Shown here piece after piece: positions 40,451 to 60,973 of a stretch of 64,000 nucleotides of DNA; position 1 is the first letter of the stretch, and every line of letters starts with the position of its first letter. The DNA lies in the NCBI GenBank assembly GCA_037178675.1, contig JAYMGJ010000008.1, forward strand, positions 146,068 to 210,067. The letters are read 5' to 3'. Origin of the DNA: Scleroderma bovista. Lineage: Eukaryota > Basidiomycota > Agaricomycetes > Boletales > Sclerodermataceae. Both the position numbers and the translations under genes were made by a program. The notes under the pieces were generated by a model. The model ran no database searches. It had not been told where the DNA came from and saw nothing but the letters and a program-made list of their open reading frames with translations.

Positions 40451-40455
40451 CACGG

Positions 40456-42309: not shown

Positions 42310-43089
42310 TATACAGCCTGTGGTGGAATTATAATTACAAACTGTAAACAATCTTTTGGGAAATGTAATGATGGGAGGAGGTAGATAGACCAATTGGGAG
42401 GTCCCAGTCCAAGTTTCAGACAAAACGGCGGTCGGAATAATATTCTACAGGTGATGCAAGCATGCTTGGGTACTGGAAACACATCTTATTAGGAAATATT
42501 CTGCAAGGCTCAGGACCATTCCCATAATCTTCAGAGACCTCAAAAACCCCAATAACAACCATTTGAACAATCTGTAATAGCTTCCTGAATTTATTAGATA
42601 CAGTAATGTAAGGTATGAGGAGTAGGGTGTGTGTGTTGTCGCAAAAAAATACAGGTACATCACAAATGTTCTTTCCACAGTCCTGTGATGATATATATAT
42701 TGGGTAGACATGTTTCAGGTATCAGTGACATGCTCCTGAATTTTCTGAGACCAATATAAGATGAGAAGAGTCACACTGGGTATATTCATAGGAACACATG
42801 TTGGGGTGTAGGAATCAACTCCCATCATCTTTCTAGTCATTTATAACATCCATATTACCACTGTCAATATGCTGAAAAGACTGTCTGAATTTATTTGATA
42901 TCATGCTATCTGATATAAGGAGAAGGGTATGTATGTTGCTGAAAAGAATACAGAAACACTCACAGTGTCCTTCACATGGTCCTATGATGATATATAGTTG
43001 GGGTAGATGGGTGTGTTGGTAGGAAAAAGTTGTTGTGGTCAAAAGTTGTATGCTACTATAAACTAAGTTCATAATCGACTAAAGCAGGT

Positions 43090-44120
43090 GAAATCGTGCT
43101 GTGGAGTGATTTGTGCATGTGGCTGATCCAGACAACTATTCTTAAAGATGGATTCATTACCATGGCCTTTGAATCAAAGGAGGGAAAACAATTTACTCTC
43201 ACCATGCACACACTCCTGAGCAGACAAAGTAAGTGGTGGATTTTGCTGGGTGTCCAAAAGCCTTTGTCCATTTTCGATTGTCGAAGACAGGAGATTTCAG
43301 TCTTTAATGAAGACAGGTGGCCCTTCATACCAAATACCTTCCCTTCATGATGGACTGAGTTATTCCATGTCTATCTTATCTTCACACACACTCAAACCTG
43401 TGTGACTAAGATGTTACGAGTTAGTTTAGATACAAACCAATATGAGTTTGACTAATTATTTACCAGGAATATGATAGTGGGCTGAATTTCACTACTGATG
43501 CTTGGATGACAGCAAACCATCATGCACCCATTGCATCCTGTGTCCATCTGGAGCACAATGGCACAACACTGATGATGCCATCAGACATTATTCAAGTACC
43601 TATATTAGTGGGTGACTAACCTGATGTACCTTGTGAGCGCTGACATGATATCAGTCCCACACTGGAAACAGTGTTTGCAAGTATTCTGGAAGGTCTTGGA
43701 TTAGCAGAAAAGGTTTTACTCGATTCAAACTTATCTGCTAATTGGATACTTGAGAGTACTCCTAGATATTTGGTGTGATGTGTGACAATGCAATGAATAA
43801 CAATGTCATGATCCAAGAGCTCTGTACACTCGAAAATAAGTTTGCTGACTCTCCAAGCCATACATGCTGTTTGTTCATATTGTGGGCCTCATTGCCAAGT
43901 CACTGATCTGCAAATTCAATGGAAAGAATGCAACCATCAAAGAAGAAACTGAACTGGCTAGATTGACAAAAGAGTTGTCTTAGGAAGAAAGCATGGTTCA
44001 GATCGAGGATGATGGTGATGATGAAGCTATGCAGGAGATCGACAACAATGAGAGATGAATGGAATAGAATGGATGATCTGACAGAGGTAGCAAGCATCGA
44101 GGTTGAAACGTTGATCCATG
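43090..44120 (+). pseudogene. hAT-like transposase relic in R1 copy 1
   Basis: The plus strand reads GLNFTTDAWMTANHHAPIAS and CVHLEHNGTT (43476-43570), the conserved hAT core pattern of basidiomycetes. ETVFASILEGLGLAEKVLL (43660) follows, then a block LFVHIVGLIAKSLICKFNGK (about 43870) and the acidic EDDGDDEAMQEI near 44000. Stops and frameshifts break it, for example at 43618, 43778 and 43983. This is unlike the multi-exon hAT at 2692-6182. Confidence 0.65.
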
Positions 44121-44449
44121 GCCTACAAGATCAGAACCATTGATCAATTGTTGCATGGTGGTCAGTTTGATATCACAAGATGTTTCAACATAATGAAATT
44201 ATACCCTTTACTTGCTGGAATATGCGGCCTCTCGACATACATTGGTTTATCCGCACCCAAATACGTCAAGCCTACTTGCCCAGTGACAAATGCTTTATAT
44301 ACCTGAAAGCATTCCATCTTCTGTTCCCTATCAAATGGTGAGAGACGTGTTGATACAACACTTGGCTTGAATGGTTGGAAAGTATTCAAGATGTCGACCT
44401 GTGCATTTAATCTATATGACATACATCCACTTGATGTTGAGTAGTCACT

Positions 44450-45227
44450 GTAATAATTTTATGGTTGTGTTCTGCATGTACCAGCCTTGGTATGATTGTA
44501 CCAATGAGGTATAGTGTTGCAAGCAAGTGCGAAGAAATGGGAGGATGGTGTATAATTATTCGGGGTTTGACTATAGGGGAAGGACTCTGTAATAATTGAT
44601 GGACATATTCTGAAGCTTGTAAACACTTTTGATAGCCCTTGTACTATTTTAACAACAAGGTATAATATATCGAAAAAGTGCAAACAAGTGGGAAGATGGT
44701 GTACAAGTGTTGGGTGGTTGGCTATGTGGGTAGACCTCTGTAATAATTCAATGGTTGCGTTCTGCAGCTTATAAATACTTTTAATACCATTCTTACTATT
44801 GTAACGGCTATTTAGGATGTTGCGAACAAGTGCGAACAAATGGGAAGATGGCATACAAGTGTTGGGGGTGACGATAGGGGCAGATCTCTGTAATATTTCG
44901 ATGAGCACGTTCTCAGCTTGTACACACCTGTACCAGTACTTGTACCATGGTCGGGAATATGTGGAATGTTGCTAATGGGTGCGAACAAATGGAAAGGTGG
45001 TGCACAAGTGTTAGTGGTTGACCATACAGGTTGACTTCTGTGATAATTTAATGGTGGTGTTCCACAGCTTGTAAACACTTGTTGCAGCATTTGTACTATT
45101 GTTAGAACTAGGTAAAATGTTTCAAACAAGTGCGAACAAATGAGAAGGTGGAGGACAAGCATTAGACGGTTGCCTATAGTGACAGACCTCTTGAATGATT
45201 GACGTGCATGTTCCACAGTTTGTAAAC
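44450..45227 (+). repeat. Satellite of about 150 bp, five units (R1 copy 1)
   Basis: Units contain CAAGTGCGAACAAATGGGAAGATGGTGTACAAGTGTT-like sequence and TCTGTAATAATT...GCAGCTTGTAAACACTT. The CAAGTGCGAA anchor recurs about every 150 bp (44524, 44677, 44826, 44977, 45128). The same array in R1 copy 2 runs on to eleven units. Confidence 0.88.
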
Positions 45228-46189
45228 TTAGGTTAGGTTAGTTAGGTTTACTTAGGGTTGAGCAAAATCGCGAAGCGATTTTGCGATTAGCCAGCTTACT
45301 GACTGAGAGACGAAGGCGAAAGGGAAGGTGGTTCCTGTGCGGGGACAGAAGACCGGTGACCTTTCGGCGTTGTTGCCTCGTCAGCCCTTTCGTTATCTCT
45401 TATATACATGATCCGACGCTGAGTCGGAAACTCAAACGACGGGGTTGAAACGAACACGTTTCGCATAGCCCACCCTAATCGCCCAATCGCTACCAAGCTG
45501 GCAAGCGTCTCCGATGCCAAGAACTCCGTCGGAGGAGGCAGAGCGGCACTACACACAGCCGTCACGGGTCAGGGATAGGTAAACTACTTACCCGGTCCAA
45601 TCTGATTGGATCCCATAGTATCGGGAATTTAATCACCGTGTGACATCGTAACCCCTTGGGGGTACGTCAACGCTAGAGGCGTTACCTCGTTGCGGTGCTT
45701 CCATTGCATCAAAACGTTTTTGTTTTGAGCCCTATCCCGGGGTCTTGGCTCCGCTTGCAGAGCGGACGTGCCTAGGGCATGAGGCCGGAGGCCTCATGTC
45801 CACCGGACCGGACCGGAGTCCGACCGGAGTTCCGCACCAAGATAACAATGTTACTCCGTCGGAGCGGAGAGAAGTGATCACATAGCCGGGGGAATGGTAA
45901 CGAATCGGAGTTACCGGCGGGATCGGACCTTGGGCCTGCTCCGCACTATTCCCAACTCGCTAAAGAGCTTCTGCCCGGGCCCCATGTGCCTTACGGGGAA
46001 AGTTCGGAGAAACTTCGGAGGGATTTGTCCGACCGGAGTCGGACCGAGCCTAGGCTCGCAGACAGCTTGTGCCTGGTCACGTGACCGGTCCGCATTGAAC
46101 CGATAGCCGGTGATCACATGACGGCCGGGACTACCCAGCCTCCCTTCTAGGAATTTTAAAACTCCGCCGGTTCCTAGCCTACACCACCG
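45228..46189 (-). mobile_element. Solo PLE terminal unit U1 with telomere-like leader
   Basis: Starts with TTAGGTTAGGTTAGTTAGG (45228 on), then a perfect hairpin GCAAAATCGC/GCGATTTTGC (45262-45284), the hammerhead at 45317-45392 and about 800 bp shared in outline with U2 and with the flanks of the full PLE copies (GTGATCACATGAC, AAACTCCGCCGGTT near its right end). No protein is encoded. It is a long-terminal-repeat-like PLE unit without the ORF, oriented with its transcript on the minus strand. Confidence 0.7.
45317..45392 (-). ncRNA. Hammerhead ribozyme, type I-like (HHR-1)
   Basis: Self-cleaving RNA on the minus strand. Stem I is CGAAAGGG (45392-45385) with CCCTTTCG (45324-45317), eight perfect pairs. 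The core CUGACGA is followed by stem II GGC-AACAAC-GCC and then GAAA. Stem III opens with AGGU/ACCU and has an inner helix UUCUGU/ACAGGAA. The cleavage triplet is CUU, cutting between 45325 and 45324. All core bases of the hammerhead are present. PLEs are known to carry such ribozymes. Confidence 0.88.
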
Positions 46190-47065
46190 GTTAGGTATGG
46201 TTAGGTTCGGTTAGGTTCGGTGTTAGGGTTAGGGGGGAGCAAAAATCGCGAAGCGATTTTTGCGATAAATCCAGCTTGCGGAGCTAGAGAGACGAGTGCG
46301 AGAGGGAAGGTGGTTCCTGTGCGGGGACAGAAGACCGGGGTGCCTTTCGACTTATTGTCTCATCAGCCCTTCTCGTTATCTCTTTTATCCGTAGACCGTT
46401 GCTGAGTCGGAATCTCAAACAGCGGGGTTGGTACGGCAAAGTTACCACATGATTCCCTAATCAACCAATCGCTACTAAGCTGGCAAGCGTCTCCGATGCC
46501 GAGAACCACGTTGTGGGGGGCAGAGCGGCACTACACACAGCCTTCGCGATAGGAAGACGGTTACTCACTTAACCGATTGGACTAGACCCTTGAGGCCTTA
46601 CTGCCGGTGTTAATTACCGTGCAACACGTTCCCCTCTTGGGGGGACAACGATACACGAGGCGTTACCTCGAGGTGATCGCTTCCATCGCATTGGATCCTT
46701 AAGATCCGAGCCCTATCCCGGGGCCTTGGCGCCGCTTGCAGAGCAGCCATGCCTAGGGCATGAGGCGGAGCCTCATGTCCACCGAAGCGGATCGAAGTCC
46801 GATCGGGATTCCGCACCAAGGGAACGATGTTTCTCCGCCGGAGCGGAGTGAAGGCGGTTGCATAGCCGGGGCAACGGTAGCGAATCGGAGCTACCGGCGG
46901 GATCGGACCTAGGGCCAGTTCCGCACTATTGCCAACTCGTTAAAGAACTTCTGCCCGGGCCCCTTGTGCCATACGGGGAAAGTTCGGAGAAACTTCAAAA
47001 GGATTTATCCGACCGGGGTCGGACCGAGCCTAGACTCGCAGACAGCTCGTGCCTGATCACGTGAC
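46190..47065 (-). mobile_element. Solo PLE terminal unit U2 with telomere-like leader
   Basis: Preceded on the plus strand by GGTTAGGTATGGTTAGGTTC and GTGTTAGGGTTAGGGGGG (46190-46236). The hairpin GCAAAAATCGC/GCGATTTTTGC spans 46239-46263, the hammerhead 46299-46375, and then about 690 bp of unit sequence follow, cut at GATCACGTGAC just before the next TTAGGTTAGG. It lacks the last part present in U1, so it is 5'-truncated relative to its transcript. Confidence 0.7.
46299..46375 (-). ncRNA. Hammerhead ribozyme, type I-like (HHR-2)
   Basis: Minus strand: stem I CGAGAAGGG (46375-46367) pairs with CCCUCUCG (46306-46299) with one bulged A. Core CUGAUGA, stem II GAC-AAUAA-GUC, GAAA, stem III AGG/CCU plus the inner UUCUGU/ACAGGAA helix, cleavage triplet CUU. 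Compared with HHR-1, stem II changes from GGC/GCC to GAC/GUC and stem I changes on both strands. Confidence 0.87.
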
Positions 47066-47987
47066 TTAGGTTAGGTTACTTAGGGTTAGGGGGGAAGTAC
47101 ACCACACAGGGTAGTGCCAACGGGTAGCCAGTGTTAATGGGCGATGAGAAAAGACGAGGGAGGAAGGGCGCTCTAGTGTAAACACCGAAGCGTGGCTCTT
47201 TCGACTTGAAGTCTCATCAGCCTCTTTTCGTCTCTTTATATATTGCATGGACAGGGATTTAGAGCGGAGTCCGAATCGCAAGCGTTGATAAGAGTGACTT
47301 ATCCCATTGGTTTACCGTTGGTTCGGTGCTACTAGACTGGCAAGCGTCTCCGATGCGAGAACCACGTAGTGGGGGCAGAGCGGCACTACACTCAGCCGAT
47401 CGCGACCCGATCGTCAGGTGAACCAACTTCCCGGTGATGTACTCCCATTATGTACAGGATGAACAATAAACCGTTTAGCTTACCATTGTCTTGGACAATG
47501 CAAGATCCAAATTAGGCGTTACCTAATAGGAAATGCTTCTGGAGCTTCTGATCCTTTAGATCCGATGCTTATCCAGCCAATCGGATGCCGCTTGCAGAGC
47601 GGCCATTGTTCCGAAGAACGTCCGATATAACTCCATTTGTAGACTCTATTGTTCTACGGAAGCGGATAACTAAATAGCCGGGGGGCGGTGACGGTAACGG
47701 TCGTCACGGCGCAATCGGACATCGGCCCTGTTGCGCACTAGCCCCACTTCGTTAAAGAACTTCTATCCGGGCGCCATGTGCCTGTCGGAAAAAAGTCGGA
47801 GATCGATCGGAGTAATTTATCCGACCGGAGTCGGACCGGGCCTAGACCCGCAGACAGCTCGTGCCTGATCACGTGACCGGACCGCATTGAACCGATAGCC
47901 GGTGATCACGTGACACCCGGGACTACCCAGGTTTACTCTCTCACGATTTTAAACTCCGCCGGTTCCCGCCACACCCTGCCACCGGTT
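47066..47987 (-). mobile_element. Solo PLE terminal unit U3
   Basis: TTAGGTTAGGTTACTTAGGGTTAGGGGGG (47066-47093, read in two parts) leads into GAAGTACACCACACAGGG, the hammerhead at 47153-47232 and a unit that ends CGCCGGTTCCCGCC near 47975. It corresponds to 51889-52784 almost base for base. Unlike the unit before ORF A it has no ORF on its transcript-3' side. Confidence 0.75.
47153..47232 (-). ncRNA. Hammerhead ribozyme (HHR-3)
   Basis: Minus strand: stem I has GACG..AGG (47232-47221) with CCU..CGUC (47163-47153) around an internal loop. Core CUGAUGA, stem II GACUU-C-AAGUC, GAAA, a long stem III, and cleavage triplet CUU. One extra base in the internal loop of stem I distinguishes it from HHR-4 to HHR-6. 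Confidence 0.8.
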
Positions 47988-48080
47988 AGGTTTGCAGTTA
48001 GGGTTAGTGGTTAGGGTTCGGGTTAGGGTTTGTCCCTGGTTAGGGTTTGGTTAAGTTAGGTTTACGGTTAGGGTTGGGTT
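47988..48080 (+). repeat. Degenerate TTAGGG telomere-like tract
   Basis: GGTTAGGTTTGCAGTTAGGG, GTGGTTAGGGTTCGGGTTAG and similar words fill about 95 bp between the unit U3 and the 3' end of PLE copy A. The G-rich strand is the plus strand and points to the antisense of the PLE 3' end, as expected if a telomeric 3' end primed reverse transcription. Confidence 0.85.
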
Positions 48081-48154
48081 AGCTATTTTCCTTGAAGAAA
48101 AGCGCCGAGGTTTCATTTCTGATGCCTCTGTAGCCCTACACCGCATTGACCAGT

Positions 48155-51100
48155 TCATAACTCCATGTCTGTTACGTCAATGTCAACCACTTGGTTCCAA
48201 TAGTCAGGACTTTCATCCCGGCTACTGTCTAGCTCGCTCAGAATAGAACGCTTCCAAGCAGAGGTTACGTCAAACAGGTTGCGAGTGCGTTTCCTGCTGA
48301 CTAACCAGCGACGATCACACAGACCGGCACGGTTAACGTCGAAGATGGTTTCCTCGACAGATTTCCCGGTGTCTCCGTCGTTCAGCCTACCATAGTGAGT
48401 AACAAGCCAGTCACAAGGCCGCTCAGATGGCACCACATTCCGCCACTTCGCGCTGGGTTTAACTTGGCCGAGACTAGCAACATCCCCCGAAGAGGACGGC
48501 CCATCAGCGGTACCCGCGGAACCCGAAGGCCCTTGGGCTCCCTGCAGTTCACCCCGAAGGGGAGCAGGAACCCGTTGCTTAGCAACGGAAACAGGATACT
48601 CATCTATGATGAACGTCCGAGCTTCCGACGAGAACCCGATAGACCTCCCTAAGGGAACTCCCGGACGGAACTCATGTCGGGACCTTTCTGCGGCATCTTC
48701 CGTGCGCCACATATGGTCATAGATGGAGTAGAGATACTCCTTCCATCGATTGGTGATAACTCTGCCGAGCTCATTGACGTTGAAATCATACCATGCTGGG
48801 TTAAACTCGGACTTTAAGACAAGAACGGGTCGTGCGGGTTTCGGCTCGGAGAGTCGTTTGTCCCACCGTTCTGCCAGGTTGTCTTTAGTCCAAGTGTAGA
48901 CCAACTTCTCTGGGTAGCCACGTGCCATATACAGCCCTTGCAGGCTTTTTATGGCGGAGACGTACTCCTCGGGGGAGGATGAAAGCGTGGCGAGACGCGA
49001 CATTTCACCGATGTAAGTGCCTTTCTTTACATCTTTGGGATGGTGAGATATCCATGGTATTCTTTCCATGTGGTTAAGTTTCTTCTGATATGGCTTATGT
49101 CCGATCTGACCGGTTACCGGATCGATGTAAATAAGCATGTCCAGGAACGGAACGAAGCGCTCCGAAACTTCCCACAATAGCCGAACTCGTTCTTCGCCAG
49201 GGTCGTCATACCGAAGTATGGATGCGACCTTGAGTGCGTTCTCAGCACTAGTAGCGTACACTATTCCAAAGACGTCGTCGATATATCTACCGACGAATGC
49301 AAACCCGAGATCTGCGAGCGCTCTCTCAGAGTGGAACAGATGTTCCTCGAAGTATGCACCCCATAAATTAGCTATGTCAGGCGACGGGGCCTGGCCCATA
49401 GCTAGTCCTTGGGTTTGGAGCCAGAAGCGTCCTTGGAATTCGACTATATTTTTGGCATTGGCTAATCTAAGACACCGTTCGAATAGTTCTATTTCTTCGA
49501 CGGGTAGGGTATTCTTATAGTAACCACGGAATAGCGTCATAACTATATCCATGGCTTCTTCCAGTGGTATGCTGGGGTAGAAAGCGACGACGTCGCCGCT
49601 TACTAACCAGGCTTTGAAGCCTGGCTTTGGATTAAGCCTTAATGATGCTAGTTTGGTTGCGAGGTGCTTAGTCCCGTGTAACACAAATTTGCACCGCTCA
49701 ACGAGCGGTTTTAGCATCTTAGAGACGTACTTGGCAGCAGGGGCTTGTGCGCTGGAATGACATGGAATTATGGGCCTGTGTTTAACAGGCTTCTTATGGA
49801 TTTTAGGGATCACATAGAACCGAGGAACACTCGGCAAACCATCTGCGCCAGGGGCCGGACATTTGTTAACCAAAAATTTAACAAACTGCTCGCTCGTGCC
49901 CGGTAAGTTGTCAAACTCCTCGGCAATGGCACGAACTTCTCGTACGGTCTCTCGCAACGTTGACTCACACTCTTCCTTAGTTACTTCTAAGTATTGTGTA
50001 GGGTCGTTGAGCAACGAATGCGCTCCTTCAATGAACCATTGCTTCGTGATTACAGCGGTACCGAGATTCTTATCGGTAATAGTAACTATTAGTCCTTTGG
50101 ACCGTAGTTCTTCCTCCAAGGCACACCAGTCAAGTAGACCTGAAGCGTAGTCAGGATGACTTGTGATGCGCGGTACAGACGATCGGACATATTCGTCCAC
50201 AAACTCTCGTCCGGCATCAATGCCTTGTTCAATGTAATGCTCCGCAAGCGGGGCCGCCTTCTTCCTAGGAAGATGGAGGTCGTAATCGGGATCATATCCG
50301 GAATCGTCTGATTCAGTCGCACCACTTAGAGCAGACTGATGCATAAAGTGTAAACGCCATCTCAAGCGTTGAACAAAATCACTATATGCTTTTGGAACTA
50401 GACTCCCTAAGGGAGTCCTATGGTACATGTACCGAAGTCCGACAGACAATGATGTAGATAAAATAAGGGGCAGCTCTACCCCAGGTCCAAGGTGCACGTT
50501 CGACCGGAATCTCATCGCCTCCACCATGGCTGGAGGCGCGGCGGCGAGGAGATATCGAACGGCTAGACCGAGTGGTAAGTCCAGTATTTCATCAGGGTAT
50601 GATAGTGGATTTTCATACCTAAGGCGCGAGGTTGAAACTACGCTCTCGCTTTGCCTTTGCCCTTGTCGGGCTTGGAGGACGGCCCAGGACCATCTCTGAT
50701 CCTCAGAGGCGTCGCGGTCTTCTGACCGGGCTTGCCTTGGGTTTTGCCACCGGTGGCCTTGGCTTTGGCCTTCTGTCCAGCGGACCCTCCGTTCTTTTTC
50801 GTCCCCGCTTTCGTTCCTGGGCCTTTTGACCCCCCTTGACCCTTGCCCTAGACAAGATGGGAGGTAGGCGTCAGTTTGACTAAGCAAAAGTGGGGTTGGA
50901 TCACTTACCGTGATGCCAAGTTGGCGGAGTCGCTGCCCCAGAGCTTTGGACACAAGGTCCTCAACCCTTTTCTCGGGTGTCGAGTCACCCATCTCGACAT
51001 CGGCGACATCCTTGAGCTTCTTCTTGGCGGCGTCGCGGGCGTTGGCAGCTTGCTCCTTGGCGGACTCTATGACGAGAATCCGGAGACCAAACTGGACAAG

Positions 51101-51774
51101 ATCCTCAAGGAGGTTCTTGACCCGCAACTCATAGGTGGGGTCAGTGACCCAACCGGTGATTTTCTCACCGCCGTTGACATCGGGCACGATCTGGGGGCGC
51201 TTATTCAGCGCCGCACCCTTAGCGGCCTGGTCGATGACGCCTTGCGCCAAGCAGGCAGCCACTGCTCTGGTTGACACGAGGCGTCGTAGAAGCTTGCCTC
51301 CTTGGATTTGTTGGCCCGAGCTAAGTCCAAGGCATCACCCTTGCACCGCTTGACCAACGCCTCCATTTCGGCGTCAGGGGGTGTGTCCAGCCCGCCCTTC
51401 TCCAAGAAGGTCCGGGAGAACTGGAACACTGGGGTGTGCAGCCCCTCAATGGCCGTAGGAAACGTACCATTGACTTTATGCTTCTCCAGCTTGGAGACAG
51501 CTGCCGAGGCCGTTGCACGGCGCTCAGCAAACTCCTTGAGGAGCTTAAAGTTGGGGCGGAGGGTCTCGCGGAAGTCGACCGGCACAAGTGCCAGGACCTC
51601 TGCTAACGACGTGGCCATCCCGAGGGATAGGCAGCGCGCCGTTGACTCAGCACCAGGGTTGGGGGGGCCAGAGGCCACCACCTCACTGATGCTCCCCTGC
51701 ACATACCCAGCTTGCGCTGGGGACATCGCACGAGGGCGGGAGGGACCGGACACTGGAGAGCGGGGATCAGTCAT
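48155..51774 (-). pseudogene. PLE reverse transcriptase, copy A (1-bp frameshift)
   Basis: Same protein as copy B (52954-56574) except for loss of one G at about 51239, which shifts frame after LPAWRKA. The N-terminal part therefore stops after 189 residues and the rest (48155 to about 51240) remains open. RT motifs are all kept: PKIHKKPVKHRPI, SGDVVAFYPSIP, GLAMGQAPSPDIANL, RYIDDVFGIV and FLDMLIYID. The start MTDPRSPVSG matches MADPRSPVSG of copy B. Differences from B are few and many are silent, so the frameshift is recent. The 61-nt intron-like segment at 50848-50908 is conserved. Confidence 0.85.
50848..50908 (-). other. Putative 61-nt intron in PLE copy A
   Basis: Minus strand GTAAGTGATCC at 50908 to CTTGTCTAG at 50848, with a CTGAC branch-like site. 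It is the counterpart of 55647-55707 in copy B with four substitutions, none in the splice signals. Confidence 0.55.
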
Positions 51775-51821
51775 GGTGAACTGCTGTTTATGACGTACGG
51801 TTGCTCTCGAACACTGATTTG

Positions 51822-52784
51822 GTTAGGGGGGAAGTACACCACACAGGGTAGTGCCAACGGGTAGCCAGGTTAATGCTAGGATTTGGTTAGGGGGGAAGTA
51901 CACCACACGGGGTAGTGCCAACGGGTAGCCAGGTTGCTAGGTGATGAGTAGAAGACGAGGGAGGAAGGGCGCTCTAGTGTAAACACCGAAGCGTGGCTCT
52001 TTCGACTTGAAGTCTCATCAGCCTCTTTCGTCTCTTTATATATTGCATGGACAGGGATTTAGAGCGGAGTCCGAATCGCAAGCGTTGATAAGAGTGACTT
52101 ATCCCATTGGTTACCGTTGGTTCGGTGCTACTAGACTGGCAAGCGTCTCCGATGCGAGAACCACGTAGTGGGGGCAGAGCGGCACTACACTCAGCCGATC
52201 GCGACCCGATCGTCAGGTGAACCAACTTCCCGGTGATGTACTCCCATTATGTACAGGATGAACAATAAACCGTTTAGCTTACCATTGTCTTGGACAATGC
52301 AAGATCCAAATTAGGCGTTACCTAATAGGAAATGCTTCTGGAGCTTCTGATCCTTTAGATCCGATGCTTATCCAGCCAATCGGGCGCCGCTTGCAGAGCG
52401 GCCATTGTTCCGAAGAACACCCGATGTAACTCCATTTGTAGATTCTATTGTTCTACGGAAGCGGATAACTAAATAGCCGGGGGGCGGTGACGGTAACGGT
52501 CGCCACGGCGCAATCGGACATTGGCCCTGTTGCGCACTAGCCCCACTTCGTTAAAGAACTTCTATCCGGGCGCCATGTGCCTGTCGGAAAAAAGTCGGAG
52601 ATCGATCGGAGTAATTTATCCGACCGGAGTCGGACCGGGCCTAGACCCGCAGACAGCTCGTGCCTGATCACGTGACCGGACCGCATTGAACCGATAGCCG
52701 GTGATCACGTGACACCCGGGACTACCCAGGTTTACTCTCTCACGATTTTAAACTCCGCCGGTTCCCGCCACACCCTGCCACCGG
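51822..52784 (-). mobile_element. PLE terminal unit upstream of ORF A
   Basis: Lies between the start of ORF A and the telomere-like tract behind ORF B. It holds HHR-4. Its ORF-proximal end is duplicated in tandem (51822-51888 and 51889-51950 both start TTGGTTAGGGGGGAAGTACA). It probably provides the promoter and 5' leader for copy A. The other end finishes CGCCACACCCTGCCACCGG. Confidence 0.75.
51954..52032 (-). ncRNA. Hammerhead ribozyme (HHR-4)
   Basis: Minus strand: stem I GACG..AGG (52032-52022) with CCU..CGUC (51964-51954), core CUGAUGA, stem II GACUU/AAGUC, GAAA and cleavage triplet CUU. It sits about 180 bp upstream of the ORF A start codon. Confidence 0.85.
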
Positions 52785-52882
52785 TTAGGTTTGTAGTTAG
52801 GGTTAGTGGTTAGGGTTCGGGTTAGGGTTTGTCCCTGGTTAGGGTTTGGTTAAGTTAGGTTTACGGTTAGGGTATGGTTAGC
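52785..52882 (+). repeat. Degenerate TTAGGG telomere-like tract
   Basis: Nearly the same as 47988-48080: TTAGG, TTAGGG and TTCGGG words for about 100 bp between a terminal unit and the 3' end of PLE copy B. Same strand and same junction (GGTTAGCTATTTTCC). Confidence 0.85.
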
Positions 52883-52953
52883 TATTTTCCTTGAAGAAAA
52901 GCGCCGAGGTTTCATTTCTGATGCCTCTGTAGCCCTATCCCGCATTGACCAGT

Positions 52954-55900
52954 TCATAACTCCATGTCTGTTACGTCAATGTCAACCACTTGGTTCCAAT
53001 AGTCAGGACTTTCATCCCGGCTACTGTCTAGCTCGCTCAGAATAGAACGCTTCCAAGCAGAGGTTACGTCAAACAGGTTGCGAGTGCGTTTCCTGCTGAC
53101 TAACCAGCGACGATCACACAGACCGGCACGGTTAACGTCGAAGATGGTTTCCTCGACAGATTTCCCGGTGTCTCCGTCGTTCAGCCTACCATAGTGAGTA
53201 ACAAGCCAGTCACAAGGCCGCTCAGATGGCACCACATTCCGCCACTTCGCGCTGGGTTTAACTTGGCCGAGACCAGCAGCATCCCCCGAAGAGGACGGCC
53301 CATCAGCGGTACCCGCGGAACCCGAAGGCCCTTGGGCTCCCTGCAGTTCACCCCGAAGGGGAGCAGGAACCCGTTGCTTAGCAACGGAAACAGGATACTC
53401 ATCTATGATGAACGTCCGAGCTTCCGACGAGAACCCGATAGACCTCCCTAAGGGAACTCCCGGACGGAACTCATGTCGGGACCTTTCTGCGGCATCTTCC
53501 GTGCGCCACATATGGTCATAGATGGAGTAGAGATACTCCTTCCATCGATTGGTGATAACTCTGCCGAGCTCATTGACGTTGAAATCATACCATGCTGGGT
53601 TAAACTCGGACTTTAAGACAAGAACGGGTCGTGCGGGTTTCGGCTCGGAGAGTCGTTTGTCCCACCGTTCTGCCAGGTTGTCTTTAGTCCAAGTGTAGAC
53701 CAACTTCTCTGGGTAGCCACGTGCCATATACAGCCCTTGCAGGCTTTTTATGGCGGAGACGTACTCCTCGGGGGAGGATGAAAGCGTGGCGAGACGCGAC
53801 ATTTCACCGATGTAAGTGCCTTTCTTTACATCTTTGGGATGGTGAGATATCCATGGTATTCTTTCCATGTGGTTAAGTTTCTTCTGATATGGCTTATGTC
53901 CGATCTGACCGGTTACCGGATCGATGTAAATAAGCATGTCCAGGAACGGAACGAAGCGCTCCGAAACTTCCCACAATAGCCGAACTCGTTCTTCGCCAGG
54001 GTCGTCGTATCTAAGTACGGATGCGACCTTGAGTGCATTTTCAGCACTGGTAGCGTACACTATTCCAAAGACGTCGTCGATATATCTACCGACGAATGCA
54101 AACCCGAGATCTGCGAGCGCTCTCTCAGAGTGGAACAGATGTTCCTCGAAGTATGCACCCCATAAGTTAGCTATGTCAGGCGACGGGGCCTGGCCCATAG
54201 CTAGTCCTTGGGTTTGGAGCCAGAAGCGTCCTTGGAATTCGACTATATTTTTGGCATTGGCTAATCTAAGACACCGTTCGAATAGTTCTATTTCTTCGAC
54301 GGGTAGGGTATTCTTATAGTAACCACGGAATAGCGTCATAACTATATCCATGGCTTCTTCCAGTGGTATGCTGGGGTAGAAAGCGACGACATCGCCGCTT
54401 ACTAACCAGGCTTTGAAGCCTGGCTTTGGATTAAGCCTTAATGATGCTAGTTTGGTTGCGAGGTGCTTAGTCCCGTGTAATACAAACTTGCACCGCTCAA
54501 CGAGCGGCTTTAGCATCTTAGAGACGTACTTGGCAGCAGGGGCTTGTGCGCTGGAATGACATGGAATTATGGGCCTGTGTTTAACAGGCTTCTTATGGAT
54601 CTTAGGGATCACATAGAACCGAGGAACACTCGGCAAACCATCTGCGCCAGGGGCCGGACATTTGTTAACCAGAAATTTAACAAACTGCTCGCTCGTGCCC
54701 GGTAAGTTGTCAAACTCCTCGGCAATGGCACGAACTTCTCGTACGGTCTCTCGCAACGTTGACTCACACTCTTCCTTAGTTACTTCTAAGTATTGTGTAG
54801 GGTCGTTGAGCAACGAATGCGCTCCTTCAATGAACCATTGCTTCGTGATTACAGCGGTACCGAGATTCTTATCGGTAACAGTAACTATTAGTCCTTTGGA
54901 CCGTAGTTCTTCCTCCAAGGCACACCAGTCAAGTAGACCTGAAGCGTAGTCGGGATGACTTGTGATGCGCGGTACAGACGATCGGACATATTCGTCCACA
55001 AACTCTCGTCCGGCATCAATGCCTTGTTCAATGTATTGCTCCGCAAGCGGGGCCGCCTTCTTCCGAGGAAGATGGAGGTCGTAATCTGGGTCATATCCAG
55101 TAGAGTCTGATTCAGTCGCACCACTTAAAGCTGACTGATGCATAAAGTATAAACGCCATCTCAAGCGTTCGACAAAATCACTATATGCTTTTGGAACTAA
55201 ACTCCCTAAGGGAGTTCTATGGTACATGTACCGGAGTCCGACAGACAATGATGTAGATAAAATAAGGGGCAGCTCTACCCCAGGTCCAAGGTGCACGTTC
55301 GACCGGAATCTCATCGCCTCCACCATGGCTGGAGGCGCGGCGGCGAGGAGATATCGAACGGCTAGACCGAGTGGTAAGTCCAGTATTTCATCAGGGTATG
55401 ATAGTGGATTTTCATACCTAAGGCGCGAGGTTGAAACTACGCTCTCGCTTTGCCTTTGCCCTTGTCGGGCTTGGAGGACGGCCCAGGACCATCTCTGATC
55501 CTCAGAGGCGTCGCGGTCTTCTGACCGGGCTTGCCTTGGGTTTTGCCACCGGTGGCCTTGGCTTTGGCCTTCTGTCCGGCGGACCCTCCGTTCTTCTTCG
55601 CGCCCGCTTTCGTTCCTGGGCCTTTTGACCCCCCTTGACCCTTGCCCTAGACAGGATGGGAGGTAGGCGTCAGTTTGACTAAGTAGAAGCGGGGTTGGAT
55701 CACTTACCGTGATGCCAAGTTGGCGGAGTCGCTGCCCCAGGGCTTTGGACACAAGGTCCTCGACCCTTTTCTCGGGTGTCGAGTCACCCATCTCGACATC
55801 GGCGACATCCTTGAGCTTCTTTTTGGCGGCGTCGCGGGCGTTGGCAGCTTGCTCCTTGGCGGACTCTATGACGAGAATCCGGAGACCAAACTGGACAAGA

Positions 55901-56574
55901 TCCTCAAGGAGGTTCTTGACCCGCAACTCGTAGGTGGGGTCAGTGACCCAACCGGTGATTTTCTCACCGCCGTTGACATCGGGCACGATCTGGGGGCGCT
56001 TATTCAGCGCCGCACCCTTAGCGGCCTGGTCGATGACGGCCTTGCGCCAAGCAGGCAGCCACTGCTCTGGTTGACACGAGGCGTCGTAGAAGCTTGCCTC
56101 CTTGGATTTGTTGGCCCGAGCTAGGTCCAAGGCATCACCCTTGCACCGCTTGACCAACGCCTCCATTTCGGCGTCAGGGGGTGTGTCCAGCCCGCCCTTC
56201 TCCAAGAAGGTCCGGGAGAACTGGAACACTGGGGTGTGCAGCCCCTCAATGGCCGTGGGAAACGTACCATTGACTTTATGCTTCTCCAGCTTGGAGACAG
56301 CTGCCGAGGCCGTTGCACGGCGCTCAGCAAACTCCTTGAGGAGCTTAAAGTTGGGGCGAAGGGTCTCGCGGAAGTCGACCGGCACAAGTGCCAGGACCTC
56401 TGCTAACGACGTGGCCATCCCGAGGGATAGGCAGCGCGCCGTCGACTCAGCACCAGGGTTGGGGGGGCCAGAGGCCACCACTTCACTGATGCTCCCCTGC
56501 ACATACCCAGCTTGCGCTGGGGACATCGCACGAGGGCGGGAGGGACCGGACACTGGAGAGCGGGGATCAGCCAT
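52954..56574 (-). CDS. Penelope-like reverse transcriptase, intact copy B
   Basis: Reverse transcriptase that copies its RNA from a primed DNA end. The open frame is 1,255 codons from 56721, but the start MADPRSPVSG at 56574 (1,206 aa) is preferred because copy A begins at the same place. Residues 1 to about 290 are Gag-like with no known motif. A basic linker is followed by the RT: TDKNLGTAVI, PKIHKKPVKHRPIIPC (RT1), SGDVVAFYPSIP (A), GLAMGQAPSPDIANL (B), RYIDDVFGIVY (C, catalytic DD) and VPFLDMLIYID, then the thumb with ISHHPKDVKKG. About 300 residues follow with no GIY-YIG endonuclease, so it is an endonuclease-free PLE of the Coprina/Athena type, known at telomeres. No stop or frameshift is visible, so it may be active. 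Confidence 0.9.
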   Translation of the reverse strand: MADPRSPVSGPSRPRAMSPAQAGYVQGSISEVVASGPPNPGAESTARCLSLGMATSLAEVLALVPVDFRETLRPNFKLLKEFAERRATASAAVSKLEKHKVNGTFPTAIEGLHTPVFQFSRTFLEKGGLDTPPDAEMEALVKRCKGDALDLARANKSKEASFYDASCQPEQWLPAWRKAVIDQAAKGAALNKRPQIVPDVNGGEKITGWVTDPTYELRVKNLLEDLVQFGLRILVIESAKEQAANARDAAKKKLKDVADVEMGDSTPEKRVEDLVSKALGQRLRQLGITVSDPTPLLLSQTDAYLPSCLGQGSRGVKRPRNESGREEERRVRRTEGQSQGHRWQNPRQARSEDRDASEDQRWSWAVLQARQGQRQSESVVSTSRLRYENPLSYPDEILDLPLGLAVRYLLAAAPPAMVEAMRFRSNVHLGPGVELPLILSTSLSVGLRYMYHRTPLGSLVPKAYSDFVERLRWRLYFMHQSALSGATESDSTGYDPDYDLHLPRKKAAPLAEQYIEQGIDAGREFVDEYVRSSVPRITSHPDYASGLLDWCALEEELRSKGLIVTVTDKNLGTAVITKQWFIEGAHSLLNDPTQYLEVTKEECESTLRETVREVRAIAEEFDNLPGTSEQFVKFLVNKCPAPGADGLPSVPRFYVIPKIHKKPVKHRPIIPCHSSAQAPAAKYVSKMLKPLVERCKFVLHGTKHLATKLASLRLNPKPGFKAWLVSGDVVAFYPSIPLEEAMDIVMTLFRGYYKNTLPVEEIELFERCLRLANAKNIVEFQGRFWLQTQGLAMGQAPSPDIANLWGAYFEEHLFHSERALADLGFAFVGRYIDDVFGIVYATSAENALKVASVLRYDDPGEERVRLLWEVSERFVPFLDMLIYIDPVTGQIGHKPYQKKLNHMERIPWISHHPKDVKKGTYIGEMSRLATLSSSPEEYVSAIKSLQGLYMARGYPEKLVYTWTKDNLAERWDKRLSEPKPARPVLVLKSEFNPAWYDFNVNELGRVITNRWKEYLYSIYDHMWRTEDAAERSRHEFRPGVPLGRSIGFSSEARTFIIDEYPVSVAKQRVPAPLRGELQGAQGPSGSAGTADGPSSSGDAAGLGQVKPSAKWRNVVPSERPCDWLVTHYGRLNDGDTGKSVEETIFDVNRAGLCDRRWLVSRKRTRNLFDVTSAWKRSILSELDSSRDESPDYWNQVVDIDVTDMEL
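55647..55707 (-). other. Putative 61-nt intron, frame-switching, in PLE copy B
   Basis: Minus strand GTAAGTGATCC (from 55707) to CCTGTCTAG (55647), with CAAACTGACG as branch-like site. Unspliced, the ORF reads straight into the RT. Spliced, the frame changes to GKGQGGSKGPGTKAGAKK and on to KGKGKARA then stop. Comparison with copy A favours this second frame as coding in the following about 90 nt. Confidence 0.55.
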
Positions 56575-56616
56575 GTGGAACTGCTGTTTATGACGTACTG
56601 ATGCTCTGAACGCTGA

Positions 56617-56965
56617 TTTGGTTAGGGGGGAAGTACACCACACGGGGTAGTGCCAACGGGTAGCCAGGTTGCTAGGTGATGAGTAGAAGACGAGGGAGGA
56701 AGGGCGCTCTAGTGTAAACACCGAAGCGTGGCTCTTTCGACTTGAAGTCTCATCAGCCTCTTTCGTCTCTTTATATATTGCATGGACAGGGATTTAGAGC
56801 GGAGTCCGAATCGCAAGCGTTGATAAGAGTGACTTATCCCATTGGTTACCGTTGGTTCGGTGCTACTAGACTGGCAAGCGTCTCCGATGCGAGAACCACG
56901 TAGTGGGGGCAGAGCGGCACTACACTCAGCCGATCGCGACCCGATCGTCAGGTGAACCAACTTCT
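56617..56965 (-). mobile_element. Truncated PLE terminal unit before ORF B
   Basis: Matches 51870-52225 including HHR-5 and ends at GAACCAACTTC, where telomere-like TTAGGTTTAGGTTAGGGTTA starts. It is therefore 5'-truncated relative to the element's transcript, as is usual for target-primed reverse transcription. Confidence 0.75.
56689..56767 (-). ncRNA. Hammerhead ribozyme (HHR-5)
   Basis: Identical in its core to HHR-4: stem I 56767-56757 with 56699-56689, CUGAUGA, stem II GACUU/AAGUC, GAAA, cleavage triplet CUU. It lies about 115 bp upstream of the intact ORF B start. Confidence 0.85.
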
Positions 56966-57143
56966 TAGGTTTAGGTTAGGGTTAGGTTAGGGGGGAAGTA
57001 CACCACACGGGGTAGTGCCAACGGGTAGCCAGGTTGCTAGGTGATGAGTAGAAGACGAGGGAGGAAGGGCGCTCTAGTGTAAACACCGAAGCGTGGCTCT
57101 TTCGACTTGAAGTCTCATCAGCCTCTTTCGTCTCTTTATATAT
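56966..57143 (-). mobile_element. Shortest PLE terminal unit, last of the array
   Basis: Telomere-like TTAGGTTTAGGTTAGGGTTA (56966 on) followed by GGGGGGAAGTACACC, HHR-6 and only the first few bases beyond it (CTCTTTATATAT), where R1 copy 2 begins at 57144. The unit was cut just after the ribozyme. Confidence 0.75.
57054..57132 (-). ncRNA. Hammerhead ribozyme (HHR-6)
   Basis: Same core and stems as HHR-4 and HHR-5. Eleven bases separate it from the R1 boundary. Confidence 0.85.
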
Positions 57144-57924
57144 TATACAGCCTGTGGTGGAATTATAATTACAAACTGTAAACAATCTTTTGGGAAATGT
57201 AATGATGGGAGGAGGTAGATAGACCAATTGGGAGGTCCCAGTCCAAGTTTCAGACAAAACGGCGGTCGGAATAATATTCTACAGGTGATGCAAGCATGCT
57301 TGGGTACTGGAAACACATCTTATTAGGAAATATTCTGCAAGGCTCAGGACCATTCCCATAATCTTCAGAGACCTCAAAAACCCCAATAACAACCATTTGA
57401 ACAATCTGTAATAGCTTCCTGAATTTATTAGATACAGTAATGTAAGGTATGAGGAGTAGGGTGTGTGTGTTGTCGCAAAAAAATACAGGTACATCACAAA
57501 TGTTCTTTCCACAGTCCTGTGATGATATATATATTGGGTAGACATGTTTCAGGTATCAGTGACATGCTCCTGAATTTTCTGAGACCAATATAAGATGAGA
57601 AGAGTCACACTGGGTATATTCATAGGAACACATGTTGGGGTGTAGGAATCAACTCCCATCATCTTTCTAGTCATTTATAACATCCATATTACCACTGTCA
57701 ATATGCTGAAAAGACTGTCTGAATTTATTTGATATCATGCTATCTGATATAAGGAGAAGGGTATGTATGTTGCTGAAAAGAATACAGAAACACTCACAGT
57801 GTCCTTCACATGGTCCTATGATGATATATAGTTGGGGTAGATGGGTGTGTTGGTAGGAAAAAGTTGTTGTGGTCAAAAGTTGTATGCTACTATAAACTAA
57901 GTTCATAATCGACTAAAGCAGGTG

Positions 57925-58950
57925 AAATCGTGCTGTGGAGTGATTTGTGCATGTGGCTGATCCAGACAACTATTCTTAAAGATGGATTCATTACCATGGC
58001 CTTTGAATCAAAGGAGGGAAAACAATTTACTCTCACCATGCACACACTCCTGAGCAGACAAAGTAAGTGGTGGATTTTGCTGGGTGTCCAAAAGCCTTTG
58101 TCCATTTTCGATTGTCGAAGACAGGAGATTTCAGTCTTTAATGAAGACAGGTGGCCCTTCATACCAAATACCTTCCCTTCATGATGGACTGAGTTATTCC
58201 ATGTCTATCTTATCTTCACACACACTCAAACCTGTGTGACTAAGATGTTACGAGTTAGTTTAGATACAAACCAATATGAGTTTGACTAATTATTTACCAG
58301 GAATATGATAGTGGGCTGAATTTCACTACTGATGCTTGGATGACAGCAAACCATCATGCACCCATTGCATCCTGTGTCCATCTGGAGCACAATGGCACAA
58401 CACTGATGATGCCATCAGACATTATTCAAGTACCTATATTAGTGGGTGACTAACCTGATGTACCTTGTGAGCGCTGACATGATATCAGTCCCACACTGGA
58501 AACAGTGTTTGCAAGTATTCTGGAAGGTCTTGGATTAGCAGAAAAGGTTTTACTCGATTCAAACTTATCTGCTAATTGGATACTTGAGAGTACTCCTAGA
58601 TATTTGGTGTGATGTGTGACAATGCAATGAATAACAATGTCATGATCCAAGAGCTCTGTACACTCGAAAATAAGTTTGCTGACTCTCCAAGCCATACATG
58701 CTGTTTGTTCATATTGTGGGCCTCATTGCCAAGTCACTGATCTGCAAATTCAATGGAAAGAATGCAACCATCAAAGAAGAAACTGAACTGGCTAGATTGA
58801 CAAAAGAGTTGTCTTAGGAAGAAAGCATGGTTCAGATCGAGGATGATGGTGATGATGAAGCTATGCAGGAGATCGACAACAATGAGAGATGAATGGAATA
58901 GAATGGATGATCTGACAGAGGTAGCAAGCATCGAGGTTGAAACGTTGATC
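57925..58950 (+). pseudogene. hAT-like transposase relic in R1 copy 2
   Basis: Exact counterpart of 43090-44120: FTTDAWMTANHHAP near 58322, LEHNGTT near 58385, and the same in-frame stops. Identity of a dead gene across two copies indicates recent duplication or gene conversion rather than selection. Confidence 0.65.
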
Positions 58951-59283
58951 CATGGCCTACAAGATCAGAACCATTGATCAATTGTTGCATGGTGGTCAGT
59001 TTGATATCACAAGATGTTTCAACATAATGAAATTATACCCTTTACTTGCTGGAATATGCGGCCTCTCGACATACATTGGTTTATCCGCACCCAAATACGT
59101 CAAGCCTACTTGCCCAGTGACAAATGCTTTATATACCTGAAAGCATTCCATCTTCTGTTCCCTATCAAATGGTGAGAGACGTGTTGATACAACACTTGGC
59201 TTGAATGGTTGGAAAGTATTCAAGATGTCGACCTGTGCATTTAATCTATATGACATACATCCACTTGATGTTGAGTAGTCACT

Positions 59284-60910
59284 GTAATAATTTTATGGTT
59301 GTGTTCTGCATGTACCAGCCTTGGTATGATTGTACCAATGAGGTATAGTGTTGCAAGCAAGTGCGAAGAAATGGGAGGATGGTGTATAATTATTCGGGGT
59401 TTGACTATAGGGGAAGGACTCTGTAATAATTGATGGACATATTCTGAAGCTTGTAAACACTTTTGATAGCCCTTGTACTATTTTAACAACAAGGTATAAT
59501 ATATCGAAAAAGTGCAAACAAGTGGGAAGATGGTGTACAAGTGTTGGGTGGTTGGCTATGTGGGTAGACCTCTGTAATAATTCAATGGTTGCGTTCTGCA
59601 GCTTATAAATACTTTTAATACCATTCTTACTATTGTAACGGCTATTTAGGATGTTGCGAACAAGTGCGAACAAATGGGAAGATGGCATACAAGTGTTGGG
59701 GGTGACGATAGGGGCAGATCTCTGTAATATTTCGATGAGCACGTTCTCAGCTTGTACACACCTGTACCAGTACTTGTACCATGGTCGGGAATATGTGGAA
59801 TGTTGCTAATGGGTGCGAACAAATGGAAAGGTGGTGCACAAGTGTTAGTGGTTGACCATACAGGTTGACTTCTGTGATAATTTAATGGTGGTGTTCCACA
59901 GCTTGTAAACACTTGTTGCAGCATTTGTACTATTGTTAGAACTAGGTAAAATGTTTCAAACAAGTGCGAACAAATGAGAAGGTGGAGGACAAGCATTAGA
60001 CGGTTGCCTATAGTGACAGACCTCTTGAATGATTGACGTGCATGTTCCACAGTTTGTAAACACATGGAAAAGCATTGGTACCATTGTAGGGACTAGGTGG
60101 AACATTGCGAACAAGTGCGAACAAATGGGACGATGGTATACAAGTGTTAGGGGGTTGACTATAGGGCAGGCCTCTCTAATCATTTGAAGGGCATATTCTG
60201 CAGCTTGCAAAAACCTGTAGCATCACCTGGATGATCCTATAGACTGGGTGGAATGTTGCGAACAAGTGCGAACGAATAGGAAGATGGTTTACAAGTATTA
60301 GGGGGTTGACTGTTCAATGGGCATGTCCTGCAACTTGTAAAAACATATAGCAGCACCTGGACGATCTTATGGACTGGGTGGAAGTTGTAAACAAGTGCAA
60401 ACAAATAGAAAGATGGTGTACAAGTGTTAGGGGGTTGGCAATAGGGGCAGGCATCTCTAATCATTCGATTGGCATGTTCTGCAGCTTGTAAAAACCTATA
60501 GCAGCTCCTGGATGATCATATGGACTAGATGGAATGTTGTGAACGAGTGCGAACAAATAGGAAGATGGTGTACAAGTGTTAAGGGGTTGACTATAGGGGA
60601 AAAACCTCTGTGATGATTTGATGGTCGTGTTATGCAGCTTGTACACACTTGTTACAGCCATTCCACTATCGGTAGAACCAGGCTCCATGTTGGAAACGAG
60701 TACGAACAAATGGGAAGATGGTGTACAAGTGTTGGGGGTGACTATAGGCAAATCTCTGTAATAAGTCGATGGTCAGATTCTTCAGCTTGTAAACACATGT
60801 AGCAGCCTTTGTACTATTTTAAACACCAGAAGGAACATTGCGAACAAGTTCCAATATAGTGTACCAGTGTTGGGGGTTGCATACAGCAGTAGACCCCTAT
60901 TGGATCTTTA
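59284..60910 (+). repeat. Satellite of about 150 bp, eleven units
   Basis: The anchor CAAGTGCGAACAAATGGGAA recurs near 59358, 59511, 59660, 59811, 59962, 60113, 60260, 60392, 60543, 60697 and 60845, i.e. steps of 147-154 bp with one of 132. Antisense open stretches encode periodic NTCTPSSHLFALV-type peptides and are not genes. The period is close to a nucleosome core length. Confidence 0.9.
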
Positions 60911-60973
60911 AAAGACCCAGGGTACACATCTGCATCCATTAGATGCGGGACAATACTAATAATAGGTCATTCC

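What the first reader, a model, noticed from the sequence alone, without database searches (positions are those of the whole stretch)
45228..57143. Array of Penelope-like elements joined head to tail through telomeric repeats
Seen: five solo or truncated terminal units and two ORF-bearing copies, all on the minus strand, each preceded on the plus strand by TTAGG/TTAGGG-type sequence (45228, 46190, 47066, 47988, 51822, 52785, 56617, 56966). The plus strand reads telomeric G-strand then antisense of the element from its 3' end. Known: endonuclease-free PLEs (Coprina in basidiomycetes, Athena in rotifers) insert at chromosome ends using the telomeric 3' overhang as primer. The polarity here is exactly what that model predicts, and it implies repeated rounds of telomere addition and PLE insertion with the chromosome end once to the right.
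Basis: partly seen in the sequence, partly recalled or inferred. Interest (0 to 1): 0.92.

Follow-up and report, generated by a model that had tools for sequence, protein, structure and literature searches.

The report
Telomere-attached Penelope-like retroelement array
This is a stack of jumping genes that a chromosome end, probably of a fungus, acquired one after another, most of them glued on through a very short stretch of telomere repeat; the arrangement is real and of a kind already known, but this genome shows the individual steps unusually clearly.

Summary
Two ORF-bearing and five partial Penelope-like (PLE) units lie at 45228-57144, all minus strand, 3' ends toward TTAGG/TTAGGG on the plus strand. 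Four of the eight listed 'telomeric' stretches (47988, 52785, 51822, 56617) belong to the element itself; four (45228, 46223, 47066, 56965) are true seeds; the joint at 51880 has none. Genome-wide, 82 of 83 intact PLE 3' ends examined follow telomere-like sequence in that polarity, 72 of 73 without the element's constant inner junction. All four long telomeres found (C81, C247, C416, C836) sit on 5'-truncated PLEs, and the 22 units on those contigs point to them. The RT model's best solved relatives are telomerases. No GIY-YIG was found, by tests of limited sensitivity. Added here: hammerhead motifs; a telomere-like 5' tract where 12 of 34 distal ends lie; seeds of at most 38 nt by a strict parser, against telomeres of 156 nt or more; and a first repeat that follows C in 33 of 48 junctions. 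Best reading: repeated end loss, telomerase healing and telomere-primed PLE addition. New member of a known kind (endonuclease-deficient telomeric PLEs); membership in Coprina proper was not tested.

The parts
42310..45227 (+). Left flank: copy of multi-copy transposon-like element X, cut off at 45227 by the first telomeric seed
   Evidence: 2918 nt identical to 57144-60061; X is multi-copy in the genome
45228..45257 (+). Telomeric seed 1 (30 nt, TTAGG/TTAG/TTTACTTAGGG mix) directly on X
   Evidence: sequence; (the strict parser sees only its last 10 nt)
45258..46222 (-). Unit 1: solo terminal repeat, type I, ending in its own telomere-like 5' part
   Evidence: 98% to reference, end at reference 965
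45317..45392 (-). Hammerhead ribozyme motif of unit 1
46223..46234 (+). Telomeric seed 2 (TTAGGGTTAGGG) on the telomere-like end of unit 1
46235..47065 (-). Unit 2: 5'-truncated terminal repeat, type I variant
   Evidence: 80%, end at reference 827
46299..46374 (-). Hammerhead ribozyme motif of unit 2
47066..47091 (+). Telomeric seed 3 (TTAGGTTAGGTTACTTAGGGTTAGGG), flush on native ...CACGTGAC of unit 2
47092..51821 (-). Unit 3: ORF-bearing PLE, type II, with 3' terminal repeat, telomere-like linker and ORF region
47156..47228 (-). Hammerhead ribozyme motif of unit 3
47983..48080 (+). Telomere-like 5' part of the terminal repeat (linker), internal to the element
48155..51774 (-). PLE ORF region of unit 3 in two overlapping frames (frameshifted): reverse transcriptase part (945 codons from ATG) and 189-codon N-terminal part
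51822..51879 (-). Start of the 5' terminal repeat at the constant inner junction, duplicated over 64 nt; no telomeric seed
51886..56616 (-). Unit 4: ORF-bearing PLE, type II
51957..52029 (-). Hammerhead ribozyme motif of unit 4
52785..52880 (+). Telomere-like 5' part of the terminal repeat in unit 4 (internal)
52954..56574 (-). Open 1206-codon PLE ORF of unit 4
56617..56964 (-). 5' terminal repeat of unit 4, truncated after 337 nt
56692..56764 (-). Hammerhead ribozyme motif in the 5' terminal repeat of unit 4
56965..56992 (+). Telomeric seed 4 (TTAGGTTTAGGTTAGGGTTAGGTTAGGG), flush on native ...ACTTC
56993..57144 (-). Unit 5: terminal repeat cut after 152 nt by element X
57057..57129 (-). Hammerhead ribozyme motif of unit 5
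57141..64000 (+). Right flank: start of another copy of element X, at least to 61000; the window ends at the contig end

Best explanation
The array is the product of a chromosome end that was repeatedly lost and rebuilt. Each round: (1) the end is a break or an eroded stump, in a transposon (element X) or inside the previous PLE copy; (2) telomerase adds a few repeats directly to the stump, preferring a 3'-terminal C or G; (3) a PLE RNA, whose 3' end is CCC (a hammerhead motif lies about 60-130 nt before that end and, in type I, a hairpin between them), pairs with the GGG of the overhang and is reverse-transcribed from that 3' OH; (4) synthesis or later erosion leaves the copy 5'-truncated, or ended in its own telomere-like 5' tract, and the next round starts. 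The chromosome end lay to the right. Shown here: polarity, seeds, truncations, live telomeres seated on truncated PLEs, the telomerase-like fold of the RT model, and the ribozyme motif. Inferred: telomerase as author of the seeds, priming by CCC:GGG pairing, ribozyme activity, and the order of events. The 51880 joint is an exception, better explained by tandem duplication or a tandem template.
Against: 14 of 72 hits do not point to the nearer contig end, nor do 4 of the 11 hits outside that count; part of this is small contigs, but C12, C193 and C552 hold arrays that now look internal. The 51880 joint has no seed. 8 of 22 anchored joints are not flush or could not be shown flush. Telomeres are at least 156 nt whereas seeds are at most 38 by the strict parser, so insertion into ordinary telomeres is not what is seen. 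The right end of the array runs into element X and the contig stops, so the original terminus is not observed. The two X flanks are identical over 2918 nt; this fits a young family but leaves room for a recombination event that I could not test.
Confidence: 0.85

Rival explanations
1. The telomeric seeds are made by the PLE reverse transcriptase itself, copying a telomere-complementary tail on its RNA (read-through into the flanking seed), without telomerase.
For: Seeds lie immediately 3' of the element, so read-through RNA would carry CCCUAA repeats; three seeds (C8:193159, C497:2412, C653:16208) share the stretch TTAGGTTACTTAGGGTTAGG. A review describes such incorporated reverse-complement repeats next to the ribozyme in rotifer Terminons (PMC6431247, passages).
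Against: Seeds of one subfamily vary in length and repeat order; the same TTAC variant occurs in true telomeres that no PLE follows, one of which begins TACTTAGGG at its base.
Confidence: 0.25
2. The array grew mainly by recombination (unequal exchange or break-induced replication between telomere-like tracts) rather than by repeated reverse transcription.
For: The two ORF copies are 98.2% identical in tandem and share a middle terminal repeat with no seed; 12 of 34 distal ends lie in the telomere-like tract; such recombination is documented for MoTeR arrays (PMC7367193, passages).
Against: Units are of different subfamilies (types I and II about 80% alike in the terminal repeat, 72-74% in the RT protein) and are truncated at unrelated points with different seeds; seeds flush on native DNA need de novo telomere addition.
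Confidence: 0.2
3. It is an ordinary tandem satellite or an assembly artefact that only happens to contain TTAGG words.
For: The contig ends 7 kb beyond the array, and arrays of near-identical repeats are hard to assemble.
Against: The same anatomy recurs on 19 contigs of known length with mostly private flanks, and the stricter telomeric patterns have no match in backwards controls.
Confidence: 0.03

Closest known systems
Coprina and other fungal endonuclease-deficient PLEs (Gladyshev and Arkhipova 2007: paper not held, recalled; the group is summarised in PMC3846280, passages)
   Same: PLE-type RT, no GIY-YIG found, 3' end on host telomeric G-strand repeats, 5' truncation followed by telomeric repeats, chromosome-end location
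   Different: Direct comparison with Coprina sequences was not possible; I do not know whether the hammerhead, the telomere-like 5' tract and the C-first seeds were described for Coprina
Athena/Terminon elements of bdelloid rotifers
   Same: Short telomeric stretches between 5'-truncated head-to-tail copies; hammerhead near the 3' end (PMC6431247, passages)
   Different: Terminons reach 40 kb with accessory ORFs; here 4.7 kb with one RT ORF region
MoTeR elements of Magnaporthe (Pyricularia)
   Same: Works alike: telomere-inserted fungal retroelement arrays, short interstitial telomere tracts, a telomere-like tract at the 5' end, truncation and healing (PMC7367193, passages)
   Different: MoTeRs are LINE-type retrotransposons (recalled); the RT here resembles telomerase and PLE RTs
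Penelope-like elements at Agaricus bisporus chromosome ends
   Same: PLEs found at two chromosome ends that lacked an assembled telomere (PMC7473861, passages)
   Different: No junction analysis was seen in the passages read

Membership tests
Endonuclease-deficient telomere-associated PLEs (Athena/Coprina type) | Reverse transcriptase of PLE type, akin to telomerase RT | tested here: met
Endonuclease-deficient telomere-associated PLEs (Athena/Coprina type) | No GIY-YIG endonuclease | tested here: inconclusive
   No GIY-YIG in Pfam scans of 3 ORF stretches and 5 relatives, no motif in 41 proteins, none in the genome; but that genome search also found no host GIY-YIG gene, which a eukaryote is expected to have (recalled), and the C-terminal model (residues 840-945) was too poor to judge
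Endonuclease-deficient telomere-associated PLEs (Athena/Coprina type) | 3' end joined to host telomeric G-strand repeats in fixed polarity | tested here: met
   82 of 83 intact 3' ends examined, 72 of 73 without constant junctions
Endonuclease-deficient telomere-associated PLEs (Athena/Coprina type) | 5' ends truncated and followed by telomeric repeats | tested here: met
   34 distinct telomere-type distal ends, many base-resolved
Endonuclease-deficient telomere-associated PLEs (Athena/Coprina type) | Location at chromosome ends | tested here: met
   4 of 4 long telomeres found by the pattern sit on PLEs; some other arrays are now internal
Endonuclease-deficient telomere-associated PLEs (Athena/Coprina type) | Hammerhead ribozyme motif in the terminal repeat | tested here: met
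   Core in 67 of 68 units, full motif at 6 places in the window and in none of 200 shuffles of 44501-58000; Rfam reported none; self-cleavage not testable
Coprina clade in the strict sense | Phylogenetic placement with named Coprina RTs | not tested
   No named Coprina sequence was returned or held; the only organism name among the 120 relatives listed is Lentinula edodes, 41% identity
MoTeR | LINE-type reverse transcriptase and endonuclease | not tested
   No MoTeR sequence was compared

The most novel reading that the evidence does not exclude
Chromosome ends in this organism are kept by a shared cycle of telomerase and PLE: telomerase heals stumps with a recognisable first repeat (C-TTAGGG, predicting a telomerase RNA template whose 3' part reads ...CCCUAAGUAA), the PLE prefers such nascent ends over mature telomeres, and the element's own telomere-like 5' tract serves as a built-in telomere seed, so that each complete copy leaves behind an end that telomerase or the next PLE can use at once.
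Probability: 0.3. Interest if true: 0.72.

Novelty: new member of a known kind. Interest (0 to 1): 0.5.

Why it matters
PLE reverse transcriptases share ancestry with telomerase (PMC3846280, passages), and how the endonuclease-free ones choose their ends is, as far as I recall, known mostly from rotifers. Here one assembly holds dozens of joints at base resolution plus four live telomeres on truncated copies, so the order of healing and insertion, the state of the acceptor end and the telomerase template can be read or tested directly.

Tried and rejected
Identical flanks as a giant target-site duplication: the 2918-nt left and right flanks are identical, but both start at the end of a multi-copy element X with seven matches to all or nearly all of a 3.86-kb query, the window's own right copy among them, so they are most simply two copies of a young transposon; I could not test whether recombination was involved.

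Intron in the ORF: a GTAAGT...CTAG stretch of 61 nt lies at 50848-50908 on the minus strand, but removing 61 nt would shift the frame and copy 2 is open through it; no intron is claimed.

Telomerase RNA: an exact search for the predicted template word found only telomeric contexts, so no candidate gene was found.

Rfam gave no hammerhead in 44500-58000 even at E up to 5; the motif was found by eye and by pattern and then checked over copies. The column-based pair count failed in stem II because the loop length differs by one (7 or 8 of 46 paired); counts anchored on the motif were used instead (45 of 46 rows match). Stem III is weak: in 25 of those 45 rows the third pair is A-C.

The C-terminal region folded alone gave a useless model (mean pLDDT 45) and was not searched. 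The solved-structure sequence search found nothing.

Hot spot at the telomere-like tract: the test for telomeric sequence is met there automatically, because the tract itself holds TTAGG; what makes the 12 ends countable is that 11 are followed by another PLE unit and one by a live telomere. The tract may also simply be the natural 5' end of complete copies. Three distinct PLE ends (C12:54871 with its copy on C193, C838:9001, C552:23351) at which the alignment stopped a few bases short of telomeric sequence were classed 'other' and left out of the 34.

First-base count: the 48 contexts include two pairs of duplicated sites that differ by a base (C8/C314 and C140/C472); merged, the count is 31 of 46 (p 1.8e-9). 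One context (C12:50446, also on C193; G first) was put in the tract class by a chance match of my pattern and is missing from the 48.
Full report
What is there. The window is the last 64 kb of contig C8 (210,067 bases) of an unnamed 51.8-Mb genome in 850 contigs. Between 45228 and 57144 lie, on the minus strand, one solo terminal repeat, one 5'-truncated one, two ORF-bearing copies in tandem (98.2% alike over 4.8 kb), remnants of their 5' terminal repeats, and a last fragment of 152 nt. Copy 2 has one open frame of 1206 codons from ATG; in copy 1 the same region is split by a frameshift into frames of 945 and 189 codons from ATG, the first being 1040 if GTG is allowed as a start.

What the telomeric stretches are. 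Four are seeds: 45228-45257 on a transposon-like element (X), 46223-46234 on the end of unit 1, 47066-47091 on unit 2, and 56965-56992 on the truncated 5' repeat of unit 4. Two (47988, 52785) are the telomere-like 5' part of the terminal repeat. Two (51822, 56617) are the constant junction between the 5' UTR and the 5' terminal repeat. The joint at 51880 is a 64-nt partial duplication without a seed.

Genome-wide test. DNA searches with the first 258 and 265 bases of the two terminal-repeat types gave 39 and 44 hits. In the loci held I found 75 units after dropping three false pattern hits (C489:39627, C836:11767, C8:186076). Ten further hits were fetched in short form: eight have an intact 3' end and two have lost it. 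Of 83 intact 3' ends, 82 are preceded on the G-strand side by telomere-like sequence and one (C127) by a degenerate version. Ten of the 83 are the constant junction; without them it is 72 of 73. Six of 48 contexts rest on a single TTAGG word. In the strict parser, seeds of 59 distinct non-constant contexts measure at most 38 nt, median 13; four score 0 and others are undercounted because of base changes (window seed 1 is 30 nt, the parser gives 10), so these are lower bounds. The contexts include other transposons and unrelated DNA.

Live telomeres. A pattern for four telomeric repeats finds long arrays at four contig ends: C81 and C247 left, C416 and C836 right; its other three contigs (C8, C497, C838) and one further place on C81 are PLE seeds; backwards control 0. 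The runs reach the contig end after 159 (a little more with one variant repeat), 168, 158 and 156 nt, so these are minima, and each sits directly on a truncated PLE: in the terminal repeat (C81), in the ORF (C247, C836), and in the telomere-like 5' tract (C416). The 22 units listed on these contigs all point to the telomere. Of 72 of the 83 hits, 58 point to the nearer contig end; the 14 others are on small contigs (C416, C836, C838) or in arrays that look internal (C12, C193, C552). Of the 11 hits outside that count 7 do and 4 (C433:22273, C625, C769, C127) do not, by the contig lengths. Telomere sequence here is a mixture of TTAGG, TTAGGG and TTTAGG with rare TTAC.

How seeds start. In 48 contexts that are neither the constant junction nor the telomere-like tract, the base before the first TTAGG is C in 33, G in 12, A in 2 and T in 1; binomial p 2e-10 for C against a quarter; later repeats follow C in 10 of 77. 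Merging two duplicated pairs gives 31 of 46. Of the eight extra 3' ends, five more show C and one G by eye; the other two are in the tract or degenerate. Where a PLE is the acceptor, comparison with other copies shows that 14 of 22 distinct anchored joints start flush on native DNA, 11 on C and 3 on G (by hand); at the C836 telomere TAC and at one C384 joint AC are not native. I infer that telomerase aligns such ends on a template whose 3' part reads ...CCCUAAGUAA. This is a prediction; no telomerase RNA gene was found.

Where copies stop. Distal ends followed by telomeric sequence number 34 distinct cases, scattered from 87 to 4003 nt, with 12 in the 146-nt telomere-like tract (expected 1.1 to 2.7 by the three backgrounds used; 7 in the 995 nt around it). 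Eleven of the 12 are followed by another PLE and one by a live telomere. Five of the ten units that follow a constant junction also end there. So these copies expose TTAGGG-like sequence at the chromosome end, as the TTCGGG(TTTGGG)n tract may do in MoTeR (PMC7367193, passages). Whether this tract is only the natural 5' end or works as a seed is open. Other distal ends run into recurrent elements: X in 5 of 75 rows, two more (called Z and W) in 5 and 4, others in 8; 9 run through to a constant junction, 5 to the end of what was held, and 4 could not be chained.

Ribozyme. The sense strand carries CUGAYGA - stem II - GAAA starting 126-133 nt from the 3' end in 67 of 68 units with at least 125 aligned nt; the exception is the 64-nt duplication. 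Six full motifs lie in the window, none on the other strand and none in 200 mononucleotide shuffles of 44501-58000. Stem I keeps four pairs in 46 of 46 distinct rows, with two pairs swapped between subfamilies (G-C and A-U in 18 rows, A-U and G-C in 28). Stem II is GAC/GTC in 37, GGC/GCC in 6 and with one wobble pair in 2 of 45 rows. Stem III is weak, and Rfam did not report a hammerhead.

Flanks. Left and right flanks are copies of X, identical over 2918 nt; X has seven matches to all or nearly all of the 3.86-kb query, the window's right copy included. X copies are cut by a telomeric seed at five different points of X (about 2921, 1584, 891, 1782, and 231 in several places) and start on truncated PLE ends at four different points. 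So X is caught up in the same end-loss and healing.

Known background. That endonuclease-deficient PLEs prime from exposed chromosome ends or breaks, followed by telomeric repeats on the truncated 5' end, and that they occur in fungi, is in print (PMC3846280, passages). Short telomeric stretches between truncated copies and a hammerhead next to the telomeric tail are described for rotifer Terminons (PMC6431247, passages). The 2007 and 2014 primary papers were not held. I therefore file this as a new member of a known kind. I make no claim that the C-first fingerprint or the tract hot spot is unpublished: none of my six literature searches was aimed at them.

Noticed in passing
contig C8: 393-1098 and 191-203 kb: PLE units stand at both ends of this 210-kb contig and point outward at each end, which would fit a small, nearly complete chromosome; a third array lies at 128 kb.
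   Followed up: partly
window 29583-29853; C8:129071, C314:206410, C480:30595, C36:56941: A composite of the first about 231 nt of element X, a telomeric seed, 18 nt of PLE and a further repeat recurs; seen in full at three places, the X part at five. A healed break has been spread by something else.
   Followed up: partly
C12:49041 (+) and C12:50446 (-): Two PLE units point at each other across a fold-back element of about 370 nt, a candidate scar of end-to-end fusion or inversion.
   Followed up: partly
C8:51353/51357, C444:18962/18965, C560:34511/34515: Starts of X or its relatives also adjoin broken PLE ORFs within a few bases, besides the four points; in each case seen the start of X is on the PLE side. 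The far end of X is unknown, so the opposite orientation could not have been noticed.
   Followed up: no
C238 (three copies, spacing 4165) and C263 (three copies, spacing 7973): More distant PLE-like RT families (36-38% and 25% identity) in regular tandem arrays.
   Followed up: no
window 31798-33695 and 40456-42310: Large inverted repeat, 88% alike, around about 6.8 kb that contains a 19-bp minisatellite at 39728-40534.
   Followed up: no
window 59313-60880: Element X contains a degenerate minisatellite with a period of about 151 bp; the first telomeric seed (45228) lies within the matching part of the left X copy.
   Followed up: no
C140:15321, C472:163626, C384:98710, C838:9139: PLE ends followed by other recurrent sequences, TTATGAGACTATCTAGG after a telomeric seed on C140 and C472, TTATGAGCCGTTCGCTGG after one on C384 and without a clear one on C838; perhaps further telomere-attached families.
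   Followed up: no
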